A stretch of 64,000 bases of DNA from Dyella sp. S184. Its GTDB lineage: Bacteria; Pseudomonadota; Gammaproteobacteria; Xanthomonadales; Rhodanobacteraceae. The stretch spans positions 124,001 to 188,000 of the forward strand of contig NZ_LMUE01000012.1 of assembly GCF_009766065.1 (NCBI RefSeq), in the 5' to 3' direction. Positions 1 through 10,717 of the stretch are shown here, piece after piece. The translations under genes and the position numbers were made by a program. The notes beneath the pieces are model-generated. The model saw nothing but the letters and a program-made list of their open reading frames with translations, did not search any database and was not told the origin of the DNA. How positions within the stretch are numbered: position 1 is the stretch's first letter; each line of letters starts with the position of its first letter.

Positions 1-1065
1 TATTTCTTTGCACCTGATCGCACGAACGCGCGACTGGATGCGGCGAAGACCGCCGCCGATCGCGCCCTGGAGCTGCAACCGAATCTGGGCCAGGGACATT
101 ACGCGCTGGGGTTGTATGACTACTGGGGGCATCGGGACTATGCCGGTGCCACCACCCAACTGGAGCTGGCTCGGCGCGCATTACCCAGCAGTGCCACCGT
201 GGAACTCATTATCGCCGCGATCGCCCGGCGCCAGGGTCACTGGGATGAGGCGGTGGCGCTGTTTCACACCGCCACCGTACTTGATCCACATAGTGAATTT
301 GCGTTCGACCAACTCGCCGTGACCTATGAAAGCATGCATCGCTACGCAGATGCCGACCTGGCCTATGCCGGTGCCATCGCGGTGAGCCGGGATCCCGTCG
401 CCAATCGCGTGGCGCAGGCCTTCAATCGCCTGATGTGGAAGGGTGATCCGACACCGCTGCACGCCGCGCTGGCCGCGCTCGCGCCGGGCAGCGATGCCTA
501 CACCAGCAATATCATGACCATGTATTTCGAGCACTGGTTGGCGCGCGATTATGCCGGTGCCATCAAGATAGCCGAGGCGGACAAGGCCGATGACTGGGCC
601 GACCCGAACAACATTGTTCTGCCCCGACACCTGTATGTGGCGTGGGCCTTGCAGGCGGCGGGAGACACGGCCAAGGCGACGGCGACGTATGCCGAGGTTG
701 CGGCGCGCATGCGCACCGCCCTCGTCGAGCGACCGGACGACGCGGACCTGCATCTGGCTCTGGGATTTGCGTATGCCGGGCTCGGCCGAAAACCCGAGGC
801 TGTCGCTGAAGGTGAGCGTGCCGTCGCCTTGATGCCGGTCAGCAAGGATGCCCTCACCGGACCGGATATGCTCGCGGCGCAAGCGCAACTGTATGTGCGG
901 GTTGGTCAGCCCGAGCAGGCCATTGCCCTGATTGGGCATGTGCTGTCCATACCTAATGGCGCCCCCCTCTCGAGTGCGTTGCTCCGGCTCGACCCAGCCT
1001 GGGATCTGCTGCGCGACGATCCACGCTTCAAGGCGCTGCTGTTGAAGTACCCCAGCAGCGGCTAG
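1..1065 (+). CDS. TPR-repeat protein, C-terminal part (5' end outside window)
   Basis: The reading frame is open from the first base and ends at TAG 1063-1065, leaving about 354 residues. The sequence is a chain of helical TPR-type repeats (A-x-x-LE-L/A-P patterns, for example near residues 24-60, 64-100 and 235-265). It ends in a segment of the form LLRLDPAWDLLRDDPRFKAL, which is common at the C-terminus of TPR proteins fused to an N-terminal winged-helix (CadC-like) or kinase/cyclase domain. The N-terminal domain is missing here, so the effector function cannot be told. Both the fold and the fusion idea rest on family knowledge. It may be a regulator of the receptor locus that follows, but only its position suggests this. 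Confidence 0.8.
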   Translation, partial: YFFAPDRTNARLDAAKTAADRALELQPNLGQGHYALGLYDYWGHRDYAGATTQLELARRALPSSATVELIIAAIARRQGHWDEAVALFHTATVLDPHSEFAFDQLAVTYESMHRYADADLAYAGAIAVSRDPVANRVAQAFNRLMWKGDPTPLHAALAALAPGSDAYTSNIMTMYFEHWLARDYAGAIKIAEADKADDWADPNNIVLPRHLYVAWALQAAGDTAKATATYAEVAARMRTALVERPDDADLHLALGFAYAGLGRKPEAVAEGERAVALMPVSKDALTGPDMLAAQAQLYVRVGQPEQAIALIGHVLSIPNGAPLSSALLRLDPAWDLLRDDPRFKALLLKYPSSG

Positions 1066-1297: not shown

Positions 1298-1444
1298 TAG
1301 TGGTCATGGAAAACTTGAAGAAAAGTGGTTATATCGAACTTTGTCTCACTTGGGTCAGGTTGCCTGCCATTAATGGAAACTGGTCCTATCCGAACCGAGT
1401 CAAAGTGGATATATGAAATCACTTTTCGTTTAGATATCGTGAAT
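1298..1444 (+). repeat. Duplicated upstream element, copy A (before TBDR1)
   Basis: Aligns without gaps to 4951-5097 at a constant offset of 3653. The left end (from TAGTGGTCAT) and the right end (AAAGTGGATATATGAAATCA, then a TTTAGATATCGT block) are the best conserved. The middle ~35 nt keep their length but not their sequence. Each copy contains the motif AGTGG(A/T or C)TATAT twice, about 78 nt apart. Because both copies precede a TBDR, a shared promoter or operator cassette is the simplest reading. That is inference. Confidence 0.75.
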
Positions 1445-1546
1445 ACCTGTTAAAAATGATATTAAGCGTTTTGAATAATTGGTGATAAGTCTATTGAGCC
1501 GCCGTTCTCGACAATTGCTGCTTTATTAGAAGTGGGATAGGGGGCG

Positions 1547-1636
1547 ATGGCGGATCATATTTCAAGTAATTACGCGGCTCGCGAATATTCGAAAATGATT
1601 TTGTTTGCGAGAATGTCTTGTGGTCGGCTTTTCTGA
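1547..1636 (+). pseudogene. 29-codon ORF, possible decayed HTH ORF or leader peptide
   Basis: ATG 1547 follows a purine-rich GATAGGGGGC ribosome-binding-like sequence and the frame closes at TGA 1634-1636. Its place (about 100 nt after element copy A, before TBDR1) mirrors that of the intact 87-aa HTH gene after copy B. Common DNA anchors (GGGGC, CATATT, AAAATG) keep nearly constant offsets of 3690-3694 between the two. It may therefore be a degenerate copy of that gene, or alternatively a leader peptide. The alignment was made by eye only. Confidence 0.3.
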
Positions 1637-1820
1637 TATCGAACAGAGCATGGCTTTATTGTGTCGACATTAAATGCCTGCATCAGAAACTCGCTTGCAC
1701 AAAATAAAATCGACAATGAGACTGCATCGACTCCGCATTGAAAATGCGTGCTGGTGGGGATTGTTCAAGGTGCGTGCACCGGCCTCAATCATCTTTCCTA
1801 AATCCGGGGGAATATGGATA

Positions 1821-4670
1821 ATGATCAAGTCGAAATTGACGGTTGCCGTGATGGCAACCCTGGCGCTTGGCTATACCTCTGCCTATGCGCAGTCGGCCCA
1901 GACCGATGCATCCCAGCAGAGCACATCCCAGCAGAGCACCGATCAAGCGCCGGACACCGCCAACGCCAAGAAGCTGCAGGCGGTCACCGTAACCGGCTCG
2001 CTGATTCCGCAGACGCAAATTGAGACGGCAACGCCCACAGTGACCATCACGGCGGACCAATTGAAGGCGCGTGGATTTGCCACGGTGGCACAGGCGCTAC
2101 AGCAATCTTCCAATGCGGTGGGCAGCGTGACAGGCCCTGAGGCTGTAGGAACTTTCACACAGGGCGCGCAGACGCTTAGCTTGTTTGGTCTATCACCCGG
2201 CTACGTGAAGTACCTGATCGACGGCCGCCCGATGGGCAATTTCCCCGCGCTCTACAACGGCAGCGATGTTTTCAACAATCTGAGCAGCATTCCGGTCGAG
2301 ATGGTCGACCACATCGACATCCTGCCGGGCGGGCAGTCGTCATTGTACGGTTCGGACGCGATTGCGGGCGTGATAAATATCGTGCTCAAGAAAAAGATCG
2401 ACGCACCGGTGCTGGACGTGCGCTATGGCTGGAACAGCAACGGCGGCGGTGCGGCGCGCCGGGGCTATCTGGCCGATAGTTTCAATGTCGGCAAATTCAA
2501 CCTGATTGCCGGCGTGCAATTCGAGAGTACACAGCCTATCTGGGCCTACGATCGGCCGCTGACCGCCCAGGCTGATCTTGATGCCGTTGGCGGACCCATC
2601 GCGGAGCGGGATTATTTGGCCACTGATCCCACGCTGGGCATTGATAGCTATAAATTCGCGGATCCCAACAATTGCGCCAACACGACGGCTGGGTTCGGCG
2701 GAACGACGGGGTACAGGTATCGCGCCAATAGCGGAAATTATTGCGGGTCGTACTACGGGGAACAGGCTTACGTCACGCTGGCCAATGAAAGCAAGACCGC
2801 AAACCTGTATACACACGCAACCTTTGACGTCAACGATAACCTGCAGTTGTACAGCGACCTGCTCTACAACTACCAGGAGCAGAAATACCAGCCGGGAGGG
2901 GCCGCCGACTGGCTGACTTCAAGTTCAGGCCTGACATTTTACGACCCCATCCGGGCTCAGTATACGGATCTGCAGCGTATCTTCTCGCCGGAAGAAGTGG
3001 GTGGCTACCAGAACTCCATGAACAAGCAGATTGAAAACGCCTATATGTTCAGTCTGGGTGGAAAAGGCACGTTCGGGCAGTCGAACTGGGACTACGATCT
3101 GGGCTTTACGCATTCCAACGACAAGACCGACGAACGTGATTACGTCGCTTTCACGAATCCCATCAATACCTTCTTTACCAATCGTGTGCTGGGCCCGGAC
3201 TTGACATCGACCCTGGGGCCGGATCCCGATGGTTATGGGGTACCCGTCTTCGAGCCCAACTACGCCGCTTTCTATACCCCGATTACGCCAGCGGAATATC
3301 ATAGCTTCACCGGTTATGCCACGACATTGGGCAAGACCTGGGACAATATGTTGCGCGGACAGGTGACTAATGCCTCGCTATTCACCTTGCCAGGCGGCGA
3401 TGCCGGCCTCGCGGTCGTGCTGGAAGGAGGCAACCAGGGCTGGGGCTATGTGCCGGACCCGGGTTATTTCAATGGAGATATCTACAATTATACCGCGGAC
3501 CAGGGTGCGGGGCATCGCTCGCGCTATGCCGCCACGACCGAGTTGAATTTTCCTCTGCTGCAGCAGCTGACCGTGGATGTATCCGGTCGTCAGGACGGAT
3601 ACGAAGTATCCGGCCACCAGGTTAAGCACAATACGTATACGGTGTCACTGGAATATCGCCCTTTCGAGAGTCTGTTGCTCAGGGGCAAATACGGCACGGC
3701 GTTCAAGGTGCCCACCTTGGCTGATGAGTATTCCGGGCCGAGCGGCTACTACAGCACGGTCACCGATTACTACAACTGCGCTAAGTTGGGGTTCACGGGC
3801 CCCACCTTGGGCCAGTGCCCGGGCGTCTATTCTCAAGCAAGCTATTTCAATAGCACCTCGGGCAATGTCAATCTGAAGCCGATCACGGCGAAAGACTGGA
3901 ATTATGGCGTCGTATGGGCGCCGACATCGAAGCTCTCGGTGACCGTCGATTATCTGCACTTCGACATCCGCAACGAAGTGGGGACGGTGCCACCGGACAC
4001 GATTTCACAGGAGAATTCCCTTTGTCTGCAGGGGATTCTTAATCCCACTACGCCGAGTTGCATCAATGCGATCAACGCGATTACGCGCAATCAATTCGGT
4101 ACGATTGAGGATATCTACACGCCGAATCAGAACATAGCGCGGGAACGGGTCAATGCCATCACCGCCAATCTGAATTATCAAGTAGATATTGGCATCTATG
4201 GCAGCTTGTCGTTCTCCGGTAGTTACAGCGACGAGCTGAAGCATGAAGAGCAGCCGCTCGCGGGCGACCCGTTCATCAACTACCTGGACAGCCCGCTGTA
4301 CAGTACCGACTTCAAGACCAAAGCCAATGCCTCGGTGACCTGGAGCCTAGGTGAATGGACCGCCACGTTGTTTGCCAACCGTGATGGTCGTTCGCCTAAC
4401 TATCTGGCAACCACTCTTGATAATTATTCATCGCCCGGTACGGGTTATCTGGCAGCTTGGGTTACCTATAACGGCAGCGTGCAATACAACCCGACGAAAA
4501 ATCTGACGCTGTCCTTCCTGGTGAACAACTTGTTCAACAAGATGCCGCCAGTGGATAACAGTTATCCGGGCTATGTATTCGGCCCCTACAACTCAGCGAA
4601 TTACAGCGTATATGGGCGCCAGTTGTATCTGGAGGCGACGTACAAGTTCGGCAACCGCTCTGCCCAGTAA
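1821..4670 (+). CDS. TonB-dependent outer-membrane receptor (TBDR1)
   Basis: A 949-residue receptor. An N-terminal signal peptide (MIKSKLTVAVMATLALG, predicted cleavage after AYA near residue 23) leads into a Gln/Ser-rich spacer. Then comes VTVTGSLI and a plug domain (about residues 45-190) with the typical DILPGGQSSLYGSDAIAGVI stretch, followed by a long beta-barrel domain. The ATG at 1821 is preferred because the frame upstream (open to 1674) would bury the signal peptide; GGGGG at 1806-1810 can serve as ribosome-binding site. It acts as an active importer in the outer membrane, powered by TonB-ExbBD. The substrate is unknown; the VTGSLI class in Xanthomonadales and Caulobacter takes up sugars, peptides or chelates. 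An intrinsic terminator follows. Confidence 0.93.
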   Translation: MIKSKLTVAVMATLALGYTSAYAQSAQTDASQQSTSQQSTDQAPDTANAKKLQAVTVTGSLIPQTQIETATPTVTITADQLKARGFATVAQALQQSSNAVGSVTGPEAVGTFTQGAQTLSLFGLSPGYVKYLIDGRPMGNFPALYNGSDVFNNLSSIPVEMVDHIDILPGGQSSLYGSDAIAGVINIVLKKKIDAPVLDVRYGWNSNGGGAARRGYLADSFNVGKFNLIAGVQFESTQPIWAYDRPLTAQADLDAVGGPIAERDYLATDPTLGIDSYKFADPNNCANTTAGFGGTTGYRYRANSGNYCGSYYGEQAYVTLANESKTANLYTHATFDVNDNLQLYSDLLYNYQEQKYQPGGAADWLTSSSGLTFYDPIRAQYTDLQRIFSPEEVGGYQNSMNKQIENAYMFSLGGKGTFGQSNWDYDLGFTHSNDKTDERDYVAFTNPINTFFTNRVLGPDLTSTLGPDPDGYGVPVFEPNYAAFYTPITPAEYHSFTGYATTLGKTWDNMLRGQVTNASLFTLPGGDAGLAVVLEGGNQGWGYVPDPGYFNGDIYNYTADQGAGHRSRYAATTELNFPLLQQLTVDVSGRQDGYEVSGHQVKHNTYTVSLEYRPFESLLLRGKYGTAFKVPTLADEYSGPSGYYSTVTDYYNCAKLGFTGPTLGQCPGVYSQASYFNSTSGNVNLKPITAKDWNYGVVWAPTSKLSVTVDYLHFDIRNEVGTVPPDTISQENSLCLQGILNPTTPSCINAINAITRNQFGTIEDIYTPNQNIARERVNAITANLNYQVDIGIYGSLSFSGSYSDELKHEEQPLAGDPFINYLDSPLYSTDFKTKANASVTWSLGEWTATLFANRDGRSPNYLATTLDNYSSPGTGYLAAWVTYNGSVQYNPTKNLTLSFLVNNLFNKMPPVDNSYPGYVFGPYNSANYSVYGRQLYLEATYKFGNRSAQ

Positions 4671-4693
4671 TTGCCAGAGTCTGATTGCAATTC

Positions 4694-4722
4694 AAATGGC
4701 CCGGCCTTCGCGGGCCATTTTT
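4694..4722 (+). terminator. Rho-independent terminator after TBDR1
   Basis: ATGGCCCG (4696-4703) pairs with CGGGCCAT (4711-4718) around a 7-nt loop, followed by TTTT. AA/TT pairs extend the stem outward. It starts 23 bp after the TBDR1 stop codon. Confidence 0.85.
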
Positions 4723-4804
4723 ATGCATGTGTATTGGCCTCTATAGCTTGTGAGATGCCCATCTACCAGCCCACCCCCTCGACAGTGACCCCTGCCTCGG
4801 ACTG

Positions 4805-4849
4805 CTACAGATTGAACGCAATCTGCTCTTCGGTGAACTTCGACTTCTT
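4805..4849 (-). pseudogene. IS3-family orfA relic (N-terminal 14 codons)
   Basis: On the minus strand the sequence reads KKSKFTEEQIAFNL followed by a stop. KKSKFTEEQIA is the characteristic N-terminus of OrfA proteins of IS3-family (IS407/IS1136-like) transposases; the frame is then lost and the start codon position carries ATA. No OrfB or terminal inverted repeats were found. It is a scar of an old insertion, identified from a short match, so confidence is moderate. Confidence 0.45.
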
Positions 4850-4950
4850 TATGGCGGCAGACTTCCTTTGGGCCTGAGTATCGCCGAATCTCTCTACTTC
4901 CGGGTCGTGATATTTCGAGGGGCGGTACCTAATGGTATTCGGCTGTCTGA

Positions 4951-5097
4951 TAGTGGTCATAACGAAATTGAAGAAGAGTGGCTATATAGGACTTTGCCCG
5001 ACGTTGTTCCGGGTGCCTTTACTTTTTGATGACTGGTCATACCCAGACTGAATCAAAGTGGATATATGAAATCACTGTTCGTTTAGATATCGTAAAT
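4951..5097 (+). repeat. Duplicated upstream element, copy B (before HTH gene and TBDR2)
   Basis: Second copy of the element at 1298-1444, colinear over ~147 bp with conserved ends. The block from 5053 to 5096 (TCAAAGTGGATATATGAAAT onward) is nearly identical to copy A. It lies about 140 nt before the HTH ORF and about 600 nt before TBDR2. Confidence 0.75.
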
Positions 5098-5239: not shown

Positions 5240-5503
5240 ATGCGTCCGACATATTATCCAGAAGAACTGAAGGCTGAAGCCATAAAAATGGTTGTGGAGC
5301 GCCATCTCCCCGCGTCCGTGGTTGCGTCGAGACTTAATGTTCGAACCGACGCGGTTCGAGTATGGGTGAGAAGGTTTCGTTTCAGCAGTAGGCCATTGCC
5401 TGGCGCCGAATTTCACCGCCTGAAGGTAGATCTTCATGAGGTGGCTGTCGAGCGCGATGCTTTAGTTAGTCTGGCGGCCCGCTTGCTTGCCAAGTTTGGT
5501 TGA
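5240..5503 (+). CDS. Orphan OrfA-like helix-turn-helix protein (IS3/HTH_Tnp_1 type)
   Basis: An 87-residue protein. The first ~45 residues match the transposase OrfA HTH pattern (YYPEELKAEAIKMVVE, then ASRLNVRTDAVRVWVRRFR). Residues ~55-87 form a heptad-like helix (HRLKVDLHEVAVERDALVSL) resembling the leucine-zipper tail of OrfA. The ATG at 5240 has AAGGAAGGGGG a few bases upstream. Size and architecture are those of a complete OrfA, yet no OrfB and no IS ends follow; TBDR2 begins 193 bp later. It is either a stranded transposase fragment or a domesticated DNA-binding protein for the receptor locus. Synteny with the decayed ORF at 1547 favours a stable module, which is inference. Confidence 0.7.
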   Translation: MRPTYYPEELKAEAIKMVVERHLPASVVASRLNVRTDAVRVWVRRFRFSSRPLPGAEFHRLKVDLHEVAVERDALVSLAARLLAKFG

Positions 5504-5696: not shown

Positions 5697-8600
5697 ATGA
5701 AATTTGGGGTCAAGAGACTTTCTTCGGCAGTTCGGATCGCCCTTTCTCTCGGCGCGGTTACTGCCATGGGTATCACCACCAGCGCATTTGCCCAGACCGT
5801 CGGCAATCAGCCTGCGACGCAGAATTCCAGCAACGCGCAAACGTCGGATCAAGCCAATCCTCCAAAAAAAGTAGCTACCTTGCAGACGGTTGTGGTCACC
5901 GGTTCGCTGATCCGCCGCGTGGATCTGGAAACCTCCAATCCGGTGGTCACGATTGACCGCGCGCAGATCGAGGCGACTGGCAAGATGACGCTGGGCGACC
6001 TGGTACAGGATCTGCCGGCGATGACAGGCGGCAACACCAATCCGCAGGTCAACAACGGCGGCGGTACTGGCGCTTCCACCATCAACCTGCGTGGTCTTGG
6101 TGCAAAACGTACCCTGATTTTGGTCGATGGTCAGCGTGTGATTAGTTCCATCGGCACGGTTACTTCGACCGAAGGTGAATCGCCGGATGTGAACGCCATC
6201 CCGGCTGCCATGATCGATCGCATCGAAGTATTGACCGACGGCGCTTCGGCGACCTATGGCTCTGATGCGATCGGCGGCGTGGTGAACTTCATCCTGCGCA
6301 AGGACTACCAGGGCGCGCAGTTCACGGCCAACGTCGGCGAATCCGACCACAACGACGGTGACCAGTCGGGCTACAGCTTCACTTTCGGACAGACGTCCGA
6401 CAAGGGAAGCATCATGGGCGGCATCGAATACAACAAGCAGGACGGCGTGGAAGCGGGCAACCGCAGTTTCTCCAAGAACGCGGTGTCGATCTATGGCACC
6501 AATGGCACGGGCCCGAGCGCGCCGCAGCCGGTGACCGCCCACGTCGGTGGATCATCGTCTTCACCCTACGGTCATATCCAGGTCACCGGCACCCCCGTGC
6601 AGGGACTTTTTGGTTGCAGCTTCGTGGCGCTTAACCCGGGTGGCAACAGCGCAGACGTCAACACTTCCAACTACCACTGCTACCAGGACAACGGCCCGAA
6701 CAGCGACAAGTACAACTACGCGGCGGTCAACCTGATCCTGACCCCGCAGGAGCGCACCAACGCGTTCCTGATGGGCACCTACAACCTGAGCGACAACGTT
6801 CAGGCCTACATGAATGCCTACTTCAACAAGACCTCGTCGAATTTTCAGCTGGCCCCTGGCGTCTACGGCGACCAGCCTTATGTCGCCGCCAACACGATCA
6901 TCGATGTCAACAATTACTTTAACCATTTTGGCGCCACCTTCAGCAGCGCCGGCCCGACCTACAACGCTCGTCTGGCCTCCCTCGGCAACCGTGTGGCGAC
7001 GTTTGGTTCCAACACCGGTCAGGTCAATCTCGGCTTGAAGGGCACTTTCTCGTTATTCAGCCAGGACTGGAACTGGGATGCCGGCCTTGACTATGGCCAT
7101 TCGGGCGCGGTCACCACGACCTTGAATCTGCCGAATGCAGGCAAGCTGTACACGGGCCCCTCCTACATGTCAGCCACAGGCCTGGCGTGCGGAACGGCGG
7201 CGGCTCCTATCGCCTGCCCGGCTGGAATCACTTCGACGGCTTTGGGGTTCAATCCGTTCGACCTGTACTCACCGGGTTCGGTCGCTGCGCTGAAGGCAGC
7301 CGCGGCACCGGCCGTCACCAATGAATATTCGAGCCTCAAGGAGTGGCACGCAGGCATCAATGGTGGCCTGTTCAGCCTGCCCGCGGGCACGGTGCAATTG
7401 GCGGCTGGTGTCGACTATCGCCAGGAATACCTCAACTCGAACGTGGATCCACTGCTGGCATTCGACCCGGTCGCCGGTACCTGTGTGCTGGGTAGCCAAT
7501 GTGTCTCGGCCACGCGTGGCGGCTATAACGTGAAGGAGGTCTTTGCGGAAACCTTGATTCCCATTCTTAGCGAGCTGCCGCTTATCAAGTCGCTGAACGC
7601 AACCATCGGCGATCGCTACTCGCGTTACGACAATGGCTACGGGAGCACCAACAACTTCAAGTTCGCGGTGGAGTACAAGCCGATCGACGATCTGTTGCTG
7701 CGTGGCACCCTGGCGAACGTGTTTCGTGCCCCCAATCTCGCGGAGGCATTCAATGGGGCGGCGGCCGACGCACCGAAGCTGTCAAACGATCCCTGCAATG
7801 GCTATACCGGCACGCCGGTCAACCCCGCCTGCGTCAATGTGCCGACGAATGGCACTTTCATCAACCAGGCCGTCGCCGCCAACAACCAGATCACCGGCAT
7901 TCTGTCAGGCGCCCAATTCGCCGGTATCCAGCTCAAGCCTGAGCAGGGCAAGTCGTTTGACTTCGGCGCGGTCTACAGCCCGTCGTGGGCACCAGGCCTG
8001 TCAACCACGGTTGATTTCTGGCATGTGTATCTCAACAACACCATCACCACGGTTGATGCGCAGAGCGTCCTCGATGTCTGCGCCGCTGGCAACCTCGCGT
8101 TCTGCTCGCAGATTCATCGCAATCCGGTCGTCGGACCCAACCAGGGCCAGATCCTGACTATCGGCGAGCCAACCGCCAACTTGGGTACGCTGAATACCGG
8201 CGGCGTCGACTGGTCGGTAGCCTACAAGTTGCCCGAATTCTCCTTCGGTAAATTCACGCTCGGCATCAACGCCACCTACCTCAAGTATTACAACCTGCAG
8301 ACTGCCCCGGGTACGGCGGGCAACACGACCTATACCGATGCGGGCCATTTCCTGTCATACGGTTCGGCGCAGGAAGCGGCCTGCCCGGGCGAGGGCACCT
8401 GCCTGTTCCCGCGCTGGCGTGCCCAGGGTTTCGTGAACTGGCAGCTGGGTAATTGGGATGCCTCCTGGCGCATGCGTTACATCGGTCGCTTCCAGATGGG
8501 TTCGGCGAGTCCGTCGCAGGATGTGTTCCCGGATGGCCAGTGCTATTACCAGGGCAAGCCGAATCCGGCGGGCGGCGTTTATCACTGCACCATCACCGGT

Positions 8601-8816
8601 GCGGAGTTCAAGTACGGCGCCACCGTCTACAATGACGTGTCGTTTGGCTACAACATCGAACCGTTGAACACGCGCATCGACTTCGGTGTGAACAACGTCT
8701 TCGACAAGCAGCCGCCCGTGCTGTACGCGAACAACTCGCTCAACGCCGACACCGACCCGAGCGATTTCGACCTGATGGGTCGTTACTTCTGGGCCCGCGT
8801 GACGGTCAAGTTCTGA
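5697..8816 (+). CDS. TonB-dependent outer-membrane receptor (TBDR2)
   Basis: A 1039-residue receptor. The signal peptide ends in TSAFA|Q near residue 33, followed by an Asn/Gln/Ser linker and TVVVTGSLIRR. The plug domain (about 60-220) contains STINLRGLGAKRTLILVDGQ and EVLTDGASATYGSDAIGGVV; the barrel ends in a C-terminal aromatic (ARVTVKF), the usual signal for BAM recognition. The start is set by GGAGGG (about 5687-5692), 4-5 nt before ATG. It is much larger than siderophore receptors (~700 aa) and matches the large oligopeptide/oligosaccharide-type TBDRs of Xanthomonadales. The ligand is unknown. A strong terminator follows, with the TPR-sulfotransferase gene immediately after it. Confidence 0.94.
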   Translation: MKFGVKRLSSAVRIALSLGAVTAMGITTSAFAQTVGNQPATQNSSNAQTSDQANPPKKVATLQTVVVTGSLIRRVDLETSNPVVTIDRAQIEATGKMTLGDLVQDLPAMTGGNTNPQVNNGGGTGASTINLRGLGAKRTLILVDGQRVISSIGTVTSTEGESPDVNAIPAAMIDRIEVLTDGASATYGSDAIGGVVNFILRKDYQGAQFTANVGESDHNDGDQSGYSFTFGQTSDKGSIMGGIEYNKQDGVEAGNRSFSKNAVSIYGTNGTGPSAPQPVTAHVGGSSSSPYGHIQVTGTPVQGLFGCSFVALNPGGNSADVNTSNYHCYQDNGPNSDKYNYAAVNLILTPQERTNAFLMGTYNLSDNVQAYMNAYFNKTSSNFQLAPGVYGDQPYVAANTIIDVNNYFNHFGATFSSAGPTYNARLASLGNRVATFGSNTGQVNLGLKGTFSLFSQDWNWDAGLDYGHSGAVTTTLNLPNAGKLYTGPSYMSATGLACGTAAAPIACPAGITSTALGFNPFDLYSPGSVAALKAAAAPAVTNEYSSLKEWHAGINGGLFSLPAGTVQLAAGVDYRQEYLNSNVDPLLAFDPVAGTCVLGSQCVSATRGGYNVKEVFAETLIPILSELPLIKSLNATIGDRYSRYDNGYGSTNNFKFAVEYKPIDDLLLRGTLANVFRAPNLAEAFNGAAADAPKLSNDPCNGYTGTPVNPACVNVPTNGTFINQAVAANNQITGILSGAQFAGIQLKPEQGKSFDFGAVYSPSWAPGLSTTVDFWHVYLNNTITTVDAQSVLDVCAAGNLAFCSQIHRNPVVGPNQGQILTIGEPTANLGTLNTGGVDWSVAYKLPEFSFGKFTLGINATYLKYYNLQTAPGTAGNTTYTDAGHFLSYGSAQEAACPGEGTCLFPRWRAQGFVNWQLGNWDASWRMRYIGRFQMGSASPSQDVFPDGQCYYQGKPNPAGGVYHCTITGAEFKYGATVYNDVSFGYNIEPLNTRIDFGVNNVFDKQPPVLYANNSLNADTDPSDFDLMGRYFWARVTVKF

Positions 8817-8884: not shown

Positions 8885-10717
8885 ATGACTACTGAAACCA
8901 CCACCCTGATCGTTCAGGCCCTGCAGGCAGCGAGACCAGCCGATGCGGAACGACTCTGTCGTGCGCAACTGGCCGATAACCCCAATGACGAGCAAGTAGT
9001 GCAGTTGCTTGCCCTCAGCCTGCATTTTCAGCGCCGCCTTGCCGAAGCCCTTGCGGCTTACGCCCGCTTGACCGAGTTGCAGCCAGAGTGCAGTGCCTAT
9101 TGGTGCAACTACGGCACCGCATTGCTGGAAAGTGGCGTGACACCGGAAGCAGAGCGCGCGTACGCGATTGCGATCAGGCTGGATCAGGGCAATCTCATGC
9201 CCAAGGTCCAGCTGGGTTTGCTGTTGCTCGCGCGCAAGGACTGCCTGGCCGCGCGCGAGACATTGCTTGACGCGTTCGAACTCGACAAGAATTTGCCGCT
9301 GACGCGAATCCATGCGGCAAACGCCTGTTGCCTGTGCCAGGATTTTCATGGCGCCGCGGACTTGCTGAAGCCTTGGCGAACATGGTTGCCGCTGGAGAGC
9401 GAACCGCTGCAGCTGGAGCTGGCCAAATTGCTGCAGCTGATGGGCGATACGCCGTCCACCGCCGTACTTTTCGAGGATCTGATTGCCCGCAACCCGTCCC
9501 ATCTGGAGGCACGATTGCTGCTGGCGAAGGTGTACGAAAGAATGAACGAACTCGCCCGCAGCGAGATCATGGCGCGCGCTCTGCTTGGGGACCCCATTGT
9601 CTCGACCGAGGCGGCAAGGAGCGACGTCCACCACCTGCTCGCTACACTGGCCCTGAGAAACGGCGACCTCGCAAACGCGCGATCCGTGCTGGAACAATGC
9701 GGACCGCGGCACGCCAGCGACTACGCGCATTATTTCGAGTTGGGGGAGACATACGACAAGCTCGGCGCGCCGGGCCAGGCAATGCAGGCCTTGCGGACGG
9801 CGCACGAATGGCAGGTGCAGGAGCTACGGATAGCGTCGCCTGAGTTCTTCCTGCCGGAGTGCCCGGCGCTGCCCGCAGCACTTCCACTGGTGACTCCCGA
9901 TGCCTATCGCCGGTGGTCGACAACGAAGGTGCCCGACTCAAGGGATTCGCCAGTCTTCATCGTGGGCTTCCCCCGTTCCGGAACGACCCTGCTTGAACAG
10001 ATGCTGGACGCACATCCGGGCCTGCAGTCGATGGACGAGAACCCTTTCTTCAACCGGCTTGCCGACAAGCTGAAGAGTCATGACGAGGGGATCATGGACA
10101 AGCTGGAACTGCTCCAGCAACGCGATTGCGACGAGCTGCGCAAGCTCTATCTGGTCATGGTTTCCGAGAAGATCCCGCGGCGCTGGGATGCGCAACTGGT
10201 GGACAAGAACCCGCTGAACATGCTCTGGGTGCCGCTGATATACCGGCTGTTTCCCCGGGCGAAGTTCATTCTTGCGGTGCGCCACCCGTGCGACGTGATC
10301 CTGAGTTGCTATATGCAGAACTTCCGTTCCGGCATCCTGGGTGCCGCCTGCGCCAACCTGCCGCGGCTGGCTTCCGCTTACGTGGGTGCGATGGATTACT
10401 GGCTGCAGAATATGGGTATCTTTCAGCCTGATGTGCTGGTGTCACGCTATGAGGATCTTGTGGCAGATTTTCCCGGGCATACTGCGCGTATCGCCCAATT
10501 CTTGGGACTGGATGATGCGACGCCGATGTTGCGGTTCGACCAGCACGCGCGCAACAAGGGATACATAGCCACCCCGAGTTACAACCAGGTCATTGAGCCA
10601 GTGAACAGAAAGGGCTTGAATCGCTGGACGCGGTACCAGCAGGAGTTCGAGCTGGTGCTCCCCACGCTCGAACCCATGCTGCGACACTGGGGCTATTCGG
10701 TTGAGGCTGACGATTGA
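8885..10717 (+). CDS. TPR-sulfotransferase fusion protein
   Basis: A 610-residue protein. Residues ~1-310 are TPR repeats. Residues ~350-600 are a Sulfotransfer_3-type PAPS-dependent sulfotransferase domain. The 5'-phosphosulfate loop FIVGFPRSGTTLLEQML is near residue 355 and the 3'-phosphate motif RHPCDVILSCY near residue 465. Family members move sulfate from PAPS to hydroxyl or tyrosine-like acceptors; the acceptor cannot be read from the sequence. No Shine-Dalgarno sequence precedes ATG 8885 because the upstream terminator sits there, so expression may depend on read-through or a leaderless message. Such fusions often neighbour TBDR genes in Xanthomonadales and sphingomonads (family knowledge). 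The TPR part probably recruits a protein partner or substrate. Confidence 0.9.
   Translation: MTTETTTLIVQALQAARPADAERLCRAQLADNPNDEQVVQLLALSLHFQRRLAEALAAYARLTELQPECSAYWCNYGTALLESGVTPEAERAYAIAIRLDQGNLMPKVQLGLLLLARKDCLAARETLLDAFELDKNLPLTRIHAANACCLCQDFHGAADLLKPWRTWLPLESEPLQLELAKLLQLMGDTPSTAVLFEDLIARNPSHLEARLLLAKVYERMNELARSEIMARALLGDPIVSTEAARSDVHHLLATLALRNGDLANARSVLEQCGPRHASDYAHYFELGETYDKLGAPGQAMQALRTAHEWQVQELRIASPEFFLPECPALPAALPLVTPDAYRRWSTTKVPDSRDSPVFIVGFPRSGTTLLEQMLDAHPGLQSMDENPFFNRLADKLKSHDEGIMDKLELLQQRDCDELRKLYLVMVSEKIPRRWDAQLVDKNPLNMLWVPLIYRLFPRAKFILAVRHPCDVILSCYMQNFRSGILGAACANLPRLASAYVGAMDYWLQNMGIFQPDVLVSRYEDLVADFPGHTARIAQFLGLDDATPMLRFDQHARNKGYIATPSYNQVIEPVNRKGLNRWTRYQQEFELVLPTLEPMLRHWGYSVEADD

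What the first reader, a model, noticed from the sequence alone, without database searches (positions are those of the whole stretch)
1298..5097. A 147-bp element duplicated upstream of two TBDR genes
1298-1444 and 4951-5097 align without gaps at a constant offset of 3653, with near-identical ends and a length-conserved but diverged middle. Selection thus seems to keep spacing between two conserved ends. Each copy also repeats AGTGGNTATAT internally about 78 nt apart. This looks like a common promoter/operator cassette that could co-regulate or switch the two receptors, and no regulator for it is known to me.
Basis: partly seen in the sequence, partly recalled or inferred. Interest (0 to 1): 0.72.

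Follow-up and report, generated by a model that had tools for sequence, protein, structure and literature searches.

The report
Duplicated MocR operator before TonB receptors
Two outer-membrane nutrient receptor genes in a Rhodanobacter-like bacterium share a copied control region that is most likely read by a nearby vitamin-B6-binding (MocR/PdxR-type) regulator, a kind of regulator for which I found no report of control over such receptors.

Summary
In detail: 1298-1444 and 4951-5097 are 113/147 identical without gaps and are the only two copies found in the genome. The element is not one unit. It is two pairs of direct-repeat boxes (about A[T/G]TGG[T/C/A][T/C]AT[A/G], 25 bp apart within a pair), followed after 14 bp by a conserved -10-like GTTTAGATATCG.

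The same paired boxes lie before related receptor modules of other Rhodanobacter genomes. They also lie in the divergent promoter of a second MocR regulator (43 of 43 genes examined, always 24 bp apart). A MocR/PdxR-type gene (GntR winged helix plus PLP-binding aminotransferase fold) sits 4 kb from the first copy; its orthologs lie within 0.4-8 kb of the HTH gene in all ten HTH-receptor modules, and box hits in four more genomes led to further orthologs. The published PdxR box AAAGTGGW(-/T)CTA closely resembles the window's fourth box, AAAGTGGATATA.

Best explanation: a duplicated MocR operator-promoter puts two dissimilar TonB receptors (24% identical) under one local PLP-dependent regulator. 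The 'switch' idea and a fixed middle length are not supported. Binding, effector, substrate and sign of regulation are untested.

The parts
1299..1333 (+). Copy 1, distal operator pair: AGTGGTCATG (1299) and AGTGGTTATA (1324), 25 bp apart
   Evidence: Box scan and shuffles, R1 and R2 models
1379..1413 (+). Copy 1, proximal operator pair: ACTGGTCCTA (1379) and AGTGGATATA (1404), 25 bp apart
1428..1439 (+). Copy 1, -10-like GTTTAGATATCG, 14 bp after the proximal box
   Evidence: Ungapped from proximal box to this motif in 11 of 12 aligned promoters; function inferred, no start mapped
1821..4670 (+). TBDR1, TonB-dependent receptor (Plug + barrel), first target
   Evidence: Pfam PF07715, PF00593
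4952..4986 (+). Copy 2, distal operator pair: AGTGGTCATA (4952) and AGTGGCTATA (4977)
5032..5066 (+). Copy 2, proximal operator pair: ACTGGTCATA (5032) and AGTGGATATA (5057)
5081..5092 (+). Copy 2, -10-like GTTTAGATATCG
   Evidence: function inferred
5240..5503 (+). 87-aa IS3-OrfA-like HTH protein gene, first gene after copy 2; a TonB receptor, not OrfB, follows
   Evidence: PF01527; purifying selection in 7 of 7 pairs compared; close kin (E below 1e-20) at ten places in 233 family genomes, all with box pairs upstream
5697..8816 (+). TBDR2, TonB-dependent receptor, second target
   Evidence: PF07715, PF00593
8885..10717 (+). TPR-sulfotransferase gene following TBDR2; also follows it in G013, G016, G017
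   Evidence: PF13469, synteny
1..1065 (+). 3' part of a Trans_reg_C-TPR regulator gene (begins before the window), between the MocR gene and copy 1. The MocR gene itself lies outside, 2.7-4.2 kb left of the window start (C6:119774-121258, minus strand)

Best explanation
Each 147-bp copy is a promoter carrying an array of two MocR-type operators. A MocR operator here is a pair of direct TGG boxes 23-25 bp apart, which fits a head-to-tail dimer. The proximal pair abuts the promoter: its second box lies about where a -35 element would be, 14 bp before a conserved -10-like sequence. The regulator is most likely the PdxR/MocR-type protein encoded 4 kb to the left of copy 1 (GntR winged helix plus PLP-binding aminotransferase fold). 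Shown: the array, its recurrence and spacing, its presence chiefly at MocR genes and TonB-receptor modules, and the constant company of a MocR gene. Inferred: binding, co-regulation of TBDR1 and the HTH-TBDR2(-sulfotransferase) unit, and activation in the presence of PLP and perhaps an amine or B6-like ligand, as in GabR. The operator, not the receptor gene, was duplicated.
For: (1) Boxes and the proximal-box to -10 distance recur in 12 promoters of nine genomes. (2) A pair exactly 24 bp apart lies upstream of, and points away from, a second MocR type in 43 of 43 genes examined, out of 66 matches of 394 bits or more; 40 of 43 by the strict pattern, against 0 of 4300 shuffles. (3) A model built only from receptor-module pairs (R2) finds those MocR operators in 27 of 43 loci at E up to 1 (24 in register, 3 on one box only; 21 at E up to 0.01) and nothing in 54 HTH-less receptor loci, 307 kb. 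(4) MocR-B lies within 0.4-8 kb of the HTH gene in all 10 HTH-receptor modules. (5) Of 9 further weak hits of model R1 outside known modules, 8 lie within 8 kb of a MocR-A or MocR-B gene; those in G009, G042, G005 and G112 led to MocR-B orthologs. (6) In G197, G200, G201, G202 and G005 a pair sits 12-13 bp from the MocR-B start codon, an autoregulatory position. (7) PLP lysine kept in 12 of 12 MocR-B compared; NCBIfam PdxR 420 bits, cut-off 320. (8) Published PdxR direct repeats AAAGTGGW(-/T)CTA and GabR ATACCA (passage of PMC4494728).
Against: No binding or expression data. R2 missed 16 of 43 MocR-A operators at E up to 1, among them the MocR-A operator of this genome, so its finding of only two target promoters here is limited by sensitivity. 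The MocR-B gene of this genome has no box pair at its own start; only 5 of the 19 MocR-B genes looked at have one 12-13 bp from the start. Three further MocR-B-like paralogs (G197, G201, G202) have no strict pair within 7 kb. Spacing of 24-25 bp is not a whole number of helix turns. About 12 chance hits would be expected for R1 at E up to 0.05 in 233 genomes, so the nine weak hits carry weight only through their position. Standard sigma-70 scans show no promoter at the proposed site.
Confidence: 0.83

Rival explanations
1. The 87-aa OrfA-like HTH protein encoded after copy 2 is the regulator: a domesticated transposase subunit that binds the boxes and controls itself and both receptors.
For: It is under purifying selection (dN/dS 0.08-0.25 in 7 pairs), and all 10 places with close kin have box pairs upstream. 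A weak homolog in G005 also starts 149 nt after the start of a pair. I held this view until.
Against: The same kind of pair stands at 43 of 43 MocR-A genes, whose genomes mostly have no HTH match at E up to 1e-9, and about 1 kb before an Oar-like receptor in G009 and G042, which have MocR-B but no HTH match. TBDR1 has boxes but no HTH gene.
Confidence: 0.06
2. The boxes are MocR operators, but the regulator is the other MocR type (MocR-A, C13:210588-212009) acting in trans.
For: Its own promoter carries similar boxes; it exists in G000, G013, G016, G025 and the four g23 genomes.
Against: G017 has four pairs at two receptor promoters but no MocR-A (best match 41% identical, which is MocR-B). 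MocR-B, not MocR-A, is near the modules. In G016 and G017 the three-pair array goes with MocR-b and its HTH type.
Confidence: 0.08
3. The element is the end or remnant of an insertion sequence or other repeat, carried in with the OrfA-like gene.
For: A transposase-like ORF lies between copy 2 and TBDR2.
Against: Only two copies found in the genome, no OrfB beside the gene, no inverted repeat of 20 nt or more bordering the element, close HTH kin found only in ten receptor-module places in 233 family genomes, and the same kind of pair at MocR genes. Rfam gives no match either.
Confidence: 0.02
4. The two copies are recombination sites that delete or switch TBDR1.
For: They are direct repeats flanking one receptor gene; G013 lacks TBDR1 between the same neighbours.
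Against: 77% identity over 147 bp; G013's element and right flank match copy 2 best (81% over 186 bp), and its left flank shows no match to copy 1's beyond the upstream gene's end.
Confidence: 0.02

Closest known systems
PdxR of Corynebacterium glutamicum (MocR subfamily, positive control of pdxST)
   Same: Published direct repeats AAAGTGGW(-/T)CTA (passage of PMC4494728) resemble AAAGTGGATATA, the fourth box here; the local regulator passes the NCBIfam PdxR cut-off.
   Different: Targets here are TonB receptors, an OrfA-like HTH gene and perhaps a TPR-sulfotransferase; no pair was found at any other place of this genome, within the model's limited sensitivity; two or three tandem pairs per promoter.
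GabR of Bacillus subtilis
   Same: Closest solved relative of MocR-B (4n0b, E 8.4e-63); direct-repeat operators; autorepressor and ligand-dependent activator (passages of PMC6917764).
   Different: Box sequence differs; a GABA ligand is not implied here.
MocR regulons reconstructed by Suvorova and Rodionov 2016 (PMC5320631)
   Same: Two or three direct boxes, TGG or TGT group, slightly variable spacing (section 9 read).
   Different: The main text does not contain 'TonB', 'outer membrane', 'receptor', 'Rhodanobacter' or 'Xanthomonad'; supplements not seen.
IS629 OrfA (2rn7) / IS3 OrfA
   Same: The one transposase part among two solved sequences that match the small HTH protein (E 0.0086); Pfam HTH_Tnp_1 in 6 of 6.
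   Different: No OrfB beside it, close kin only at receptor modules.

Membership tests
MocR-type operator | Two or more direct (or direct plus inverted) boxes with a conserved TGG or TGT group | tested here: met
   24 pairs aligned: TGG and a following T invariant in both boxes (the pairs were picked by TGG, so the TGG part is partly by construction); definition from PMC5320631 section 9
MocR-type operator | Distance between boxes constant within an orthologous group, with slight variation | tested here: met
   23-25 bp in the pairs at receptor modules; 24 bp in all 43 MocR-A operators examined
MocR-type operator | Distance equals one or several helix turns | tested here: inconclusive
   24-25 bp is about 2.3-2.4 turns
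MocR-type operator | Lies near a MocR gene and its targets | tested here: met
   10 of 10 HTH-receptor modules; 16 of 19 MocR-B loci have a pair within about 7 kb, 14 by strict pattern (G016's two MocR-B genes share the same pairs) plus G009 and G042 by model; 3 paralogs have none
MocR-type operator | Autoregulatory site at the MocR gene | tested here: inconclusive
   Present 12-13 bp from the start in G197, G200, G201, G202, G005; absent at the MocR-B gene of this genome
MocR-type operator | Bound by the MocR protein | not testable with these tools
   needs EMSA or footprinting
MocR/PdxR protein (the local regulator) | GntR wHTH plus class I aminotransferase domain with PLP lysine | tested here: met
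   PF00392 and PF00155; GT[FLY][ST]K in 12 of 12
PdxR regulon in the functional sense | Controls PLP synthesis, salvage or transport genes (pdxST, pdxK, pdxU) | tested here: inconclusive
   Own-genome search with the pair model finds only the four pairs at the two receptor promoters, but the model also misses this genome's MocR-A operator, and pdx promoters were not read one by one; so it is filed as MocR-type with PdxR-like sequence, not as a PdxR regulon
IS3 insertion sequence | OrfA followed by OrfB and terminal inverted repeats | tested here: not met
   A TonB receptor follows the OrfA-like gene in the 9 of 10 modules whose contig continues; no inverted repeat of 20 nt or more borders the element; shorter ones not tested

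The most novel reading that the evidence does not exclude
A local PLP-sensing PdxR/MocR regulator controls TonB-dependent receptors of otherwise dissimilar types (TBDR1, TBDR2, Oar-like) in Rhodanobacter through portable operator arrays, marking an undescribed outer-membrane uptake route for B6 vitamers or amine compounds, with an OrfA-derived small HTH protein recruited as a co-regulator.
Probability: 0.2. Interest if true: 0.68.

Novelty: new variant of a known kind. Interest (0 to 1): 0.47.

Why it matters
The receptors here have no known substrate: no NCBIfam receptor model reaches its cut-off for TBDR1, TBDR2 or TBDR3. Tying two of them to a regulator class that senses PLP and, in the best-known case, an amine ligand gives a testable handle on what they import. 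It also adds, as far as my searches reach, a new target class to the MocR family and a case in which an operator array, not a gene, was duplicated to recruit a second receptor. The OrfA-like HTH gene looks like a former transposase part fixed as a regulon member.

Tried and rejected
First working idea: the OrfA-like HTH protein binds the boxes. It was dropped when the same kind of pair appeared at MocR genes without any HTH.

BLAST of the whole element in the genus found, besides the window's genome, only G013 and a 36-bp part in G017; the motif had to be carried by models and a box pattern. Sigma-70 scans gave one hit at 1450-1479 (1.2 expected by shuffling) and none near copy 2. Rfam gave no match. 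L113 (G109) is the one of nine weak R1 hits without a MocR neighbour; I count it as chance. The L115 pair (G112) lies 185 bp beyond the 3' end of a MocR-B gene, so its meaning is open; it counts in the '8 of 9' by position only. In G005 several of the 8 pairs have no target that I identified.

In one search I scanned minus-strand loci in the wrong orientation; redid it. One search (two of three terms) was uninformative: the 25 rows listed had no MocR. One search returned nothing.

So '16 of 19' comes from loci reached through boxes, HTH or and is not a census. Of the 66 MocR-A matches I examined 43: 30 returned as loci and 13 that I chose. Five of the 54 control receptor loci have under 150 nt of upstream sequence. 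No structure was predicted.
Full report
WHAT IS THERE. The two stretches align without gaps at 113 of 147 positions and no other copy is found in the 4.23-Mb genome by BLAST. Four boxes lie in each copy: 1299 AGTGGTCATG, 1324 AGTGGTTATA, 1379 ACTGGTCCTA, 1404 AGTGGATATA, and the same places +3653. Two boxes form a pair 25 bp apart; the pairs are 80 bp apart. Two pairs per 300-bp region were never reached in 2000 shuffles of either region; one pair or more was reached in 2 of 2000 (copy 1) and 0 of 2000 (copy 2). The window holds no other such pair on either strand.

SURROUNDINGS. Copy 1 precedes TBDR1 (1821-4670). Copy 2 precedes an 87-aa HTH gene (5240-5503), then TBDR2 (5697-8816) and a TPR-sulfotransferase (8885-10717). 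TBDR1 and TBDR2 are 24% identical, so the operator and not the gene was duplicated. In G013 the upstream regulator gene is followed directly by a copy-2-like element and HTH-TBDR2, with no TBDR1 there. In G017 a TBDR1 97% identical to the window's keeps only the proximal pair.

RECURRENCE. Of 45 genus genomes BLAST finds the element in three, the window's own included. The HTH protein led further: ten close kin in nine genomes, all with box pairs before the HTH gene and, in the nine places where the contig continues, a TonB receptor after it. Each has two or three pairs if degenerate boxes are allowed, one to three by the strict pattern, spaced 23-25 bp within and 13 to 193 bp between pairs. 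From the proximal box to a GTTYA..TA motif the alignment is ungapped in 11 of 12 promoters. HTH-less TBDR1 and TBDR2 homologs have no pairs: 0 in 54 loci, 306,805 bases, by model and by pattern; five of the 54 have under 150 nt of upstream sequence.

THE REGULATOR. A sequence model of the proximal promoter (R1), searched in 233 family genomes, returned 29 rows: 12 training promoters, 8 distal or autoregulatory pairs of known modules, and 9 others. About 12 chance rows at E up to 0.05 would be expected, so position decides. Three of the nine (G093, G105, G145) lie in the divergent promoter of a MocR-type gene, MocR-A. The family search gave 66 MocR-A matches of 394 bits or more (my cut); I examined 43, and all 43 have a pair of AGTGG or GGTGG boxes exactly 24 bp apart upstream, pointing away from the gene, 40 by the strict pattern against 0 of 4300 shuffles. 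A pair model built only from receptor modules (R2) recovers 27 of the 43 at E up to 1, 24 in register, and misses 16. Then a second MocR type, MocR-B, was found near all ten HTH-receptor modules. In this genome it is C6:119774-121258, minus strand, 494 aa, 2.7-4.2 kb left of the window, with GntR and aminotransferase domains, the PLP lysine, GabR as closest solved structure and a PdxR score above NCBIfam's cut-off.

TESTS OF THE LINK. Of the nine other R1 hits, five more lie in MocR-B neighbourhoods: G009 and G042 (pair about 1 kb before an Oar-like receptor, no HTH match; MocR-B about 4.5 kb on, 65% identical to the window's), G005 (8 strict pairs in the 54 kb scanned around a MocR-B, one 13 bp from its start codon), G112 (pair 185 bp past the 3' end of a MocR-B) and G017. 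Only G109 is unexplained. Sixteen of 19 MocR-B loci held have a pair within about 7 kb (14 by strict pattern; G009 and G042 by R2); G016's two MocR-B genes share the same pairs, and three paralogs in G197, G201 and G202 have none. Modules seem to be exchanged whole: G016's TBDR2 is 96% that of the window, but its HTH (55%), its MocR-b (89% to G017's, 61% to the window's) and its three-pair array are of G017's type; both genomes also keep a MocR-a 94-95% like the window's. In this genome R2 finds only the four pairs; since it misses the genome's own MocR-A operator, further weak targets cannot be excluded.

HOW IT LIKELY WORKS. From passages seen (PMC6917764 and PMC4494728), MocR proteins probably dimerise head to tail and bind direct repeats; GabR needs PLP and GABA to activate and represses its own gene. 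The second box of the proximal pair sits about where a -35 element would be and the scans show no standard promoter there, which fits an activator-dependent promoter; this step is inference. The distal pairs may add a second dimer or, where MocR-B is immediately divergent, serve autoregulation. The role of the OrfA-like HTH protein is open; it is under purifying selection and stands downstream of a pair in all ten modules and, as a weak homolog, 149 nt after a pair in G005.

LITERATURE. In the PMC library 'MocR' with 'TonB-dependent receptor' occurs in one paper, where passages show MocR in a reference title and the receptor in a table row. The MocR regulon paper PMC5320631 (abstract and sections 9 and 11 read) lacks 'TonB' and 'outer membrane' in its main text; its supplements were not seen. 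'MocR' with 'Rhodanobacter' gives two papers, seen as a listing only. Most subscription papers are not covered.

VERDICT. The finding is a duplicated MocR-type operator-promoter: a known kind of operator with a target class and an array form that I could not find described. Specialists in MocR proteins or TonB receptors would find it useful and testable rather than astonishing.

Noticed in passing
L168:1390-2484 (minus), G000:C13 about 209.4-210.5 kb: The protein encoded divergently from MocR-A (364 aa here, with DDAWWTGPMLANSAETLPPGHFLIEPYLYDV) has no Pfam or NCBIfam match. The motif was seen beside MocR-A in 13 of 13 loci, in two of them as second gene; a dedicated target of unknown function.
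   Followed up: partly
window 5240-5503: An IS3-OrfA-like 87-aa protein without OrfB; close kin (E below 1e-20) at ten places in 233 family genomes, all beside box pairs. It looks like a domesticated transposase part.
   Followed up: partly
L017 (G016:C11:262821-265307): The G016 homolog of TBDR1 is 98% identical but has an in-frame TAA and its match begins at residue 121; it looks like a broken gene.
   Followed up: no
L132 and L226 (G005:C34): Eight strict box pairs between about 137.7 and 153.9 kb around one MocR-B gene, with a second MocR fragment and a receptor fragment nearby: a larger regulon or an expanding set of operators.
   Followed up: partly
window 8885-10717: TPR-sulfotransferase gene directly after TBDR2, also in G013, G016 and G017; possibly linked to the receptor's substrate.
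   Followed up: no
window 4703-4716: Terminator-like hairpin with T run just after TBDR1 (0.7 expected by shuffling), so TBDR1 and the HTH-TBDR2 unit may be separate transcripts.
   Followed up: no
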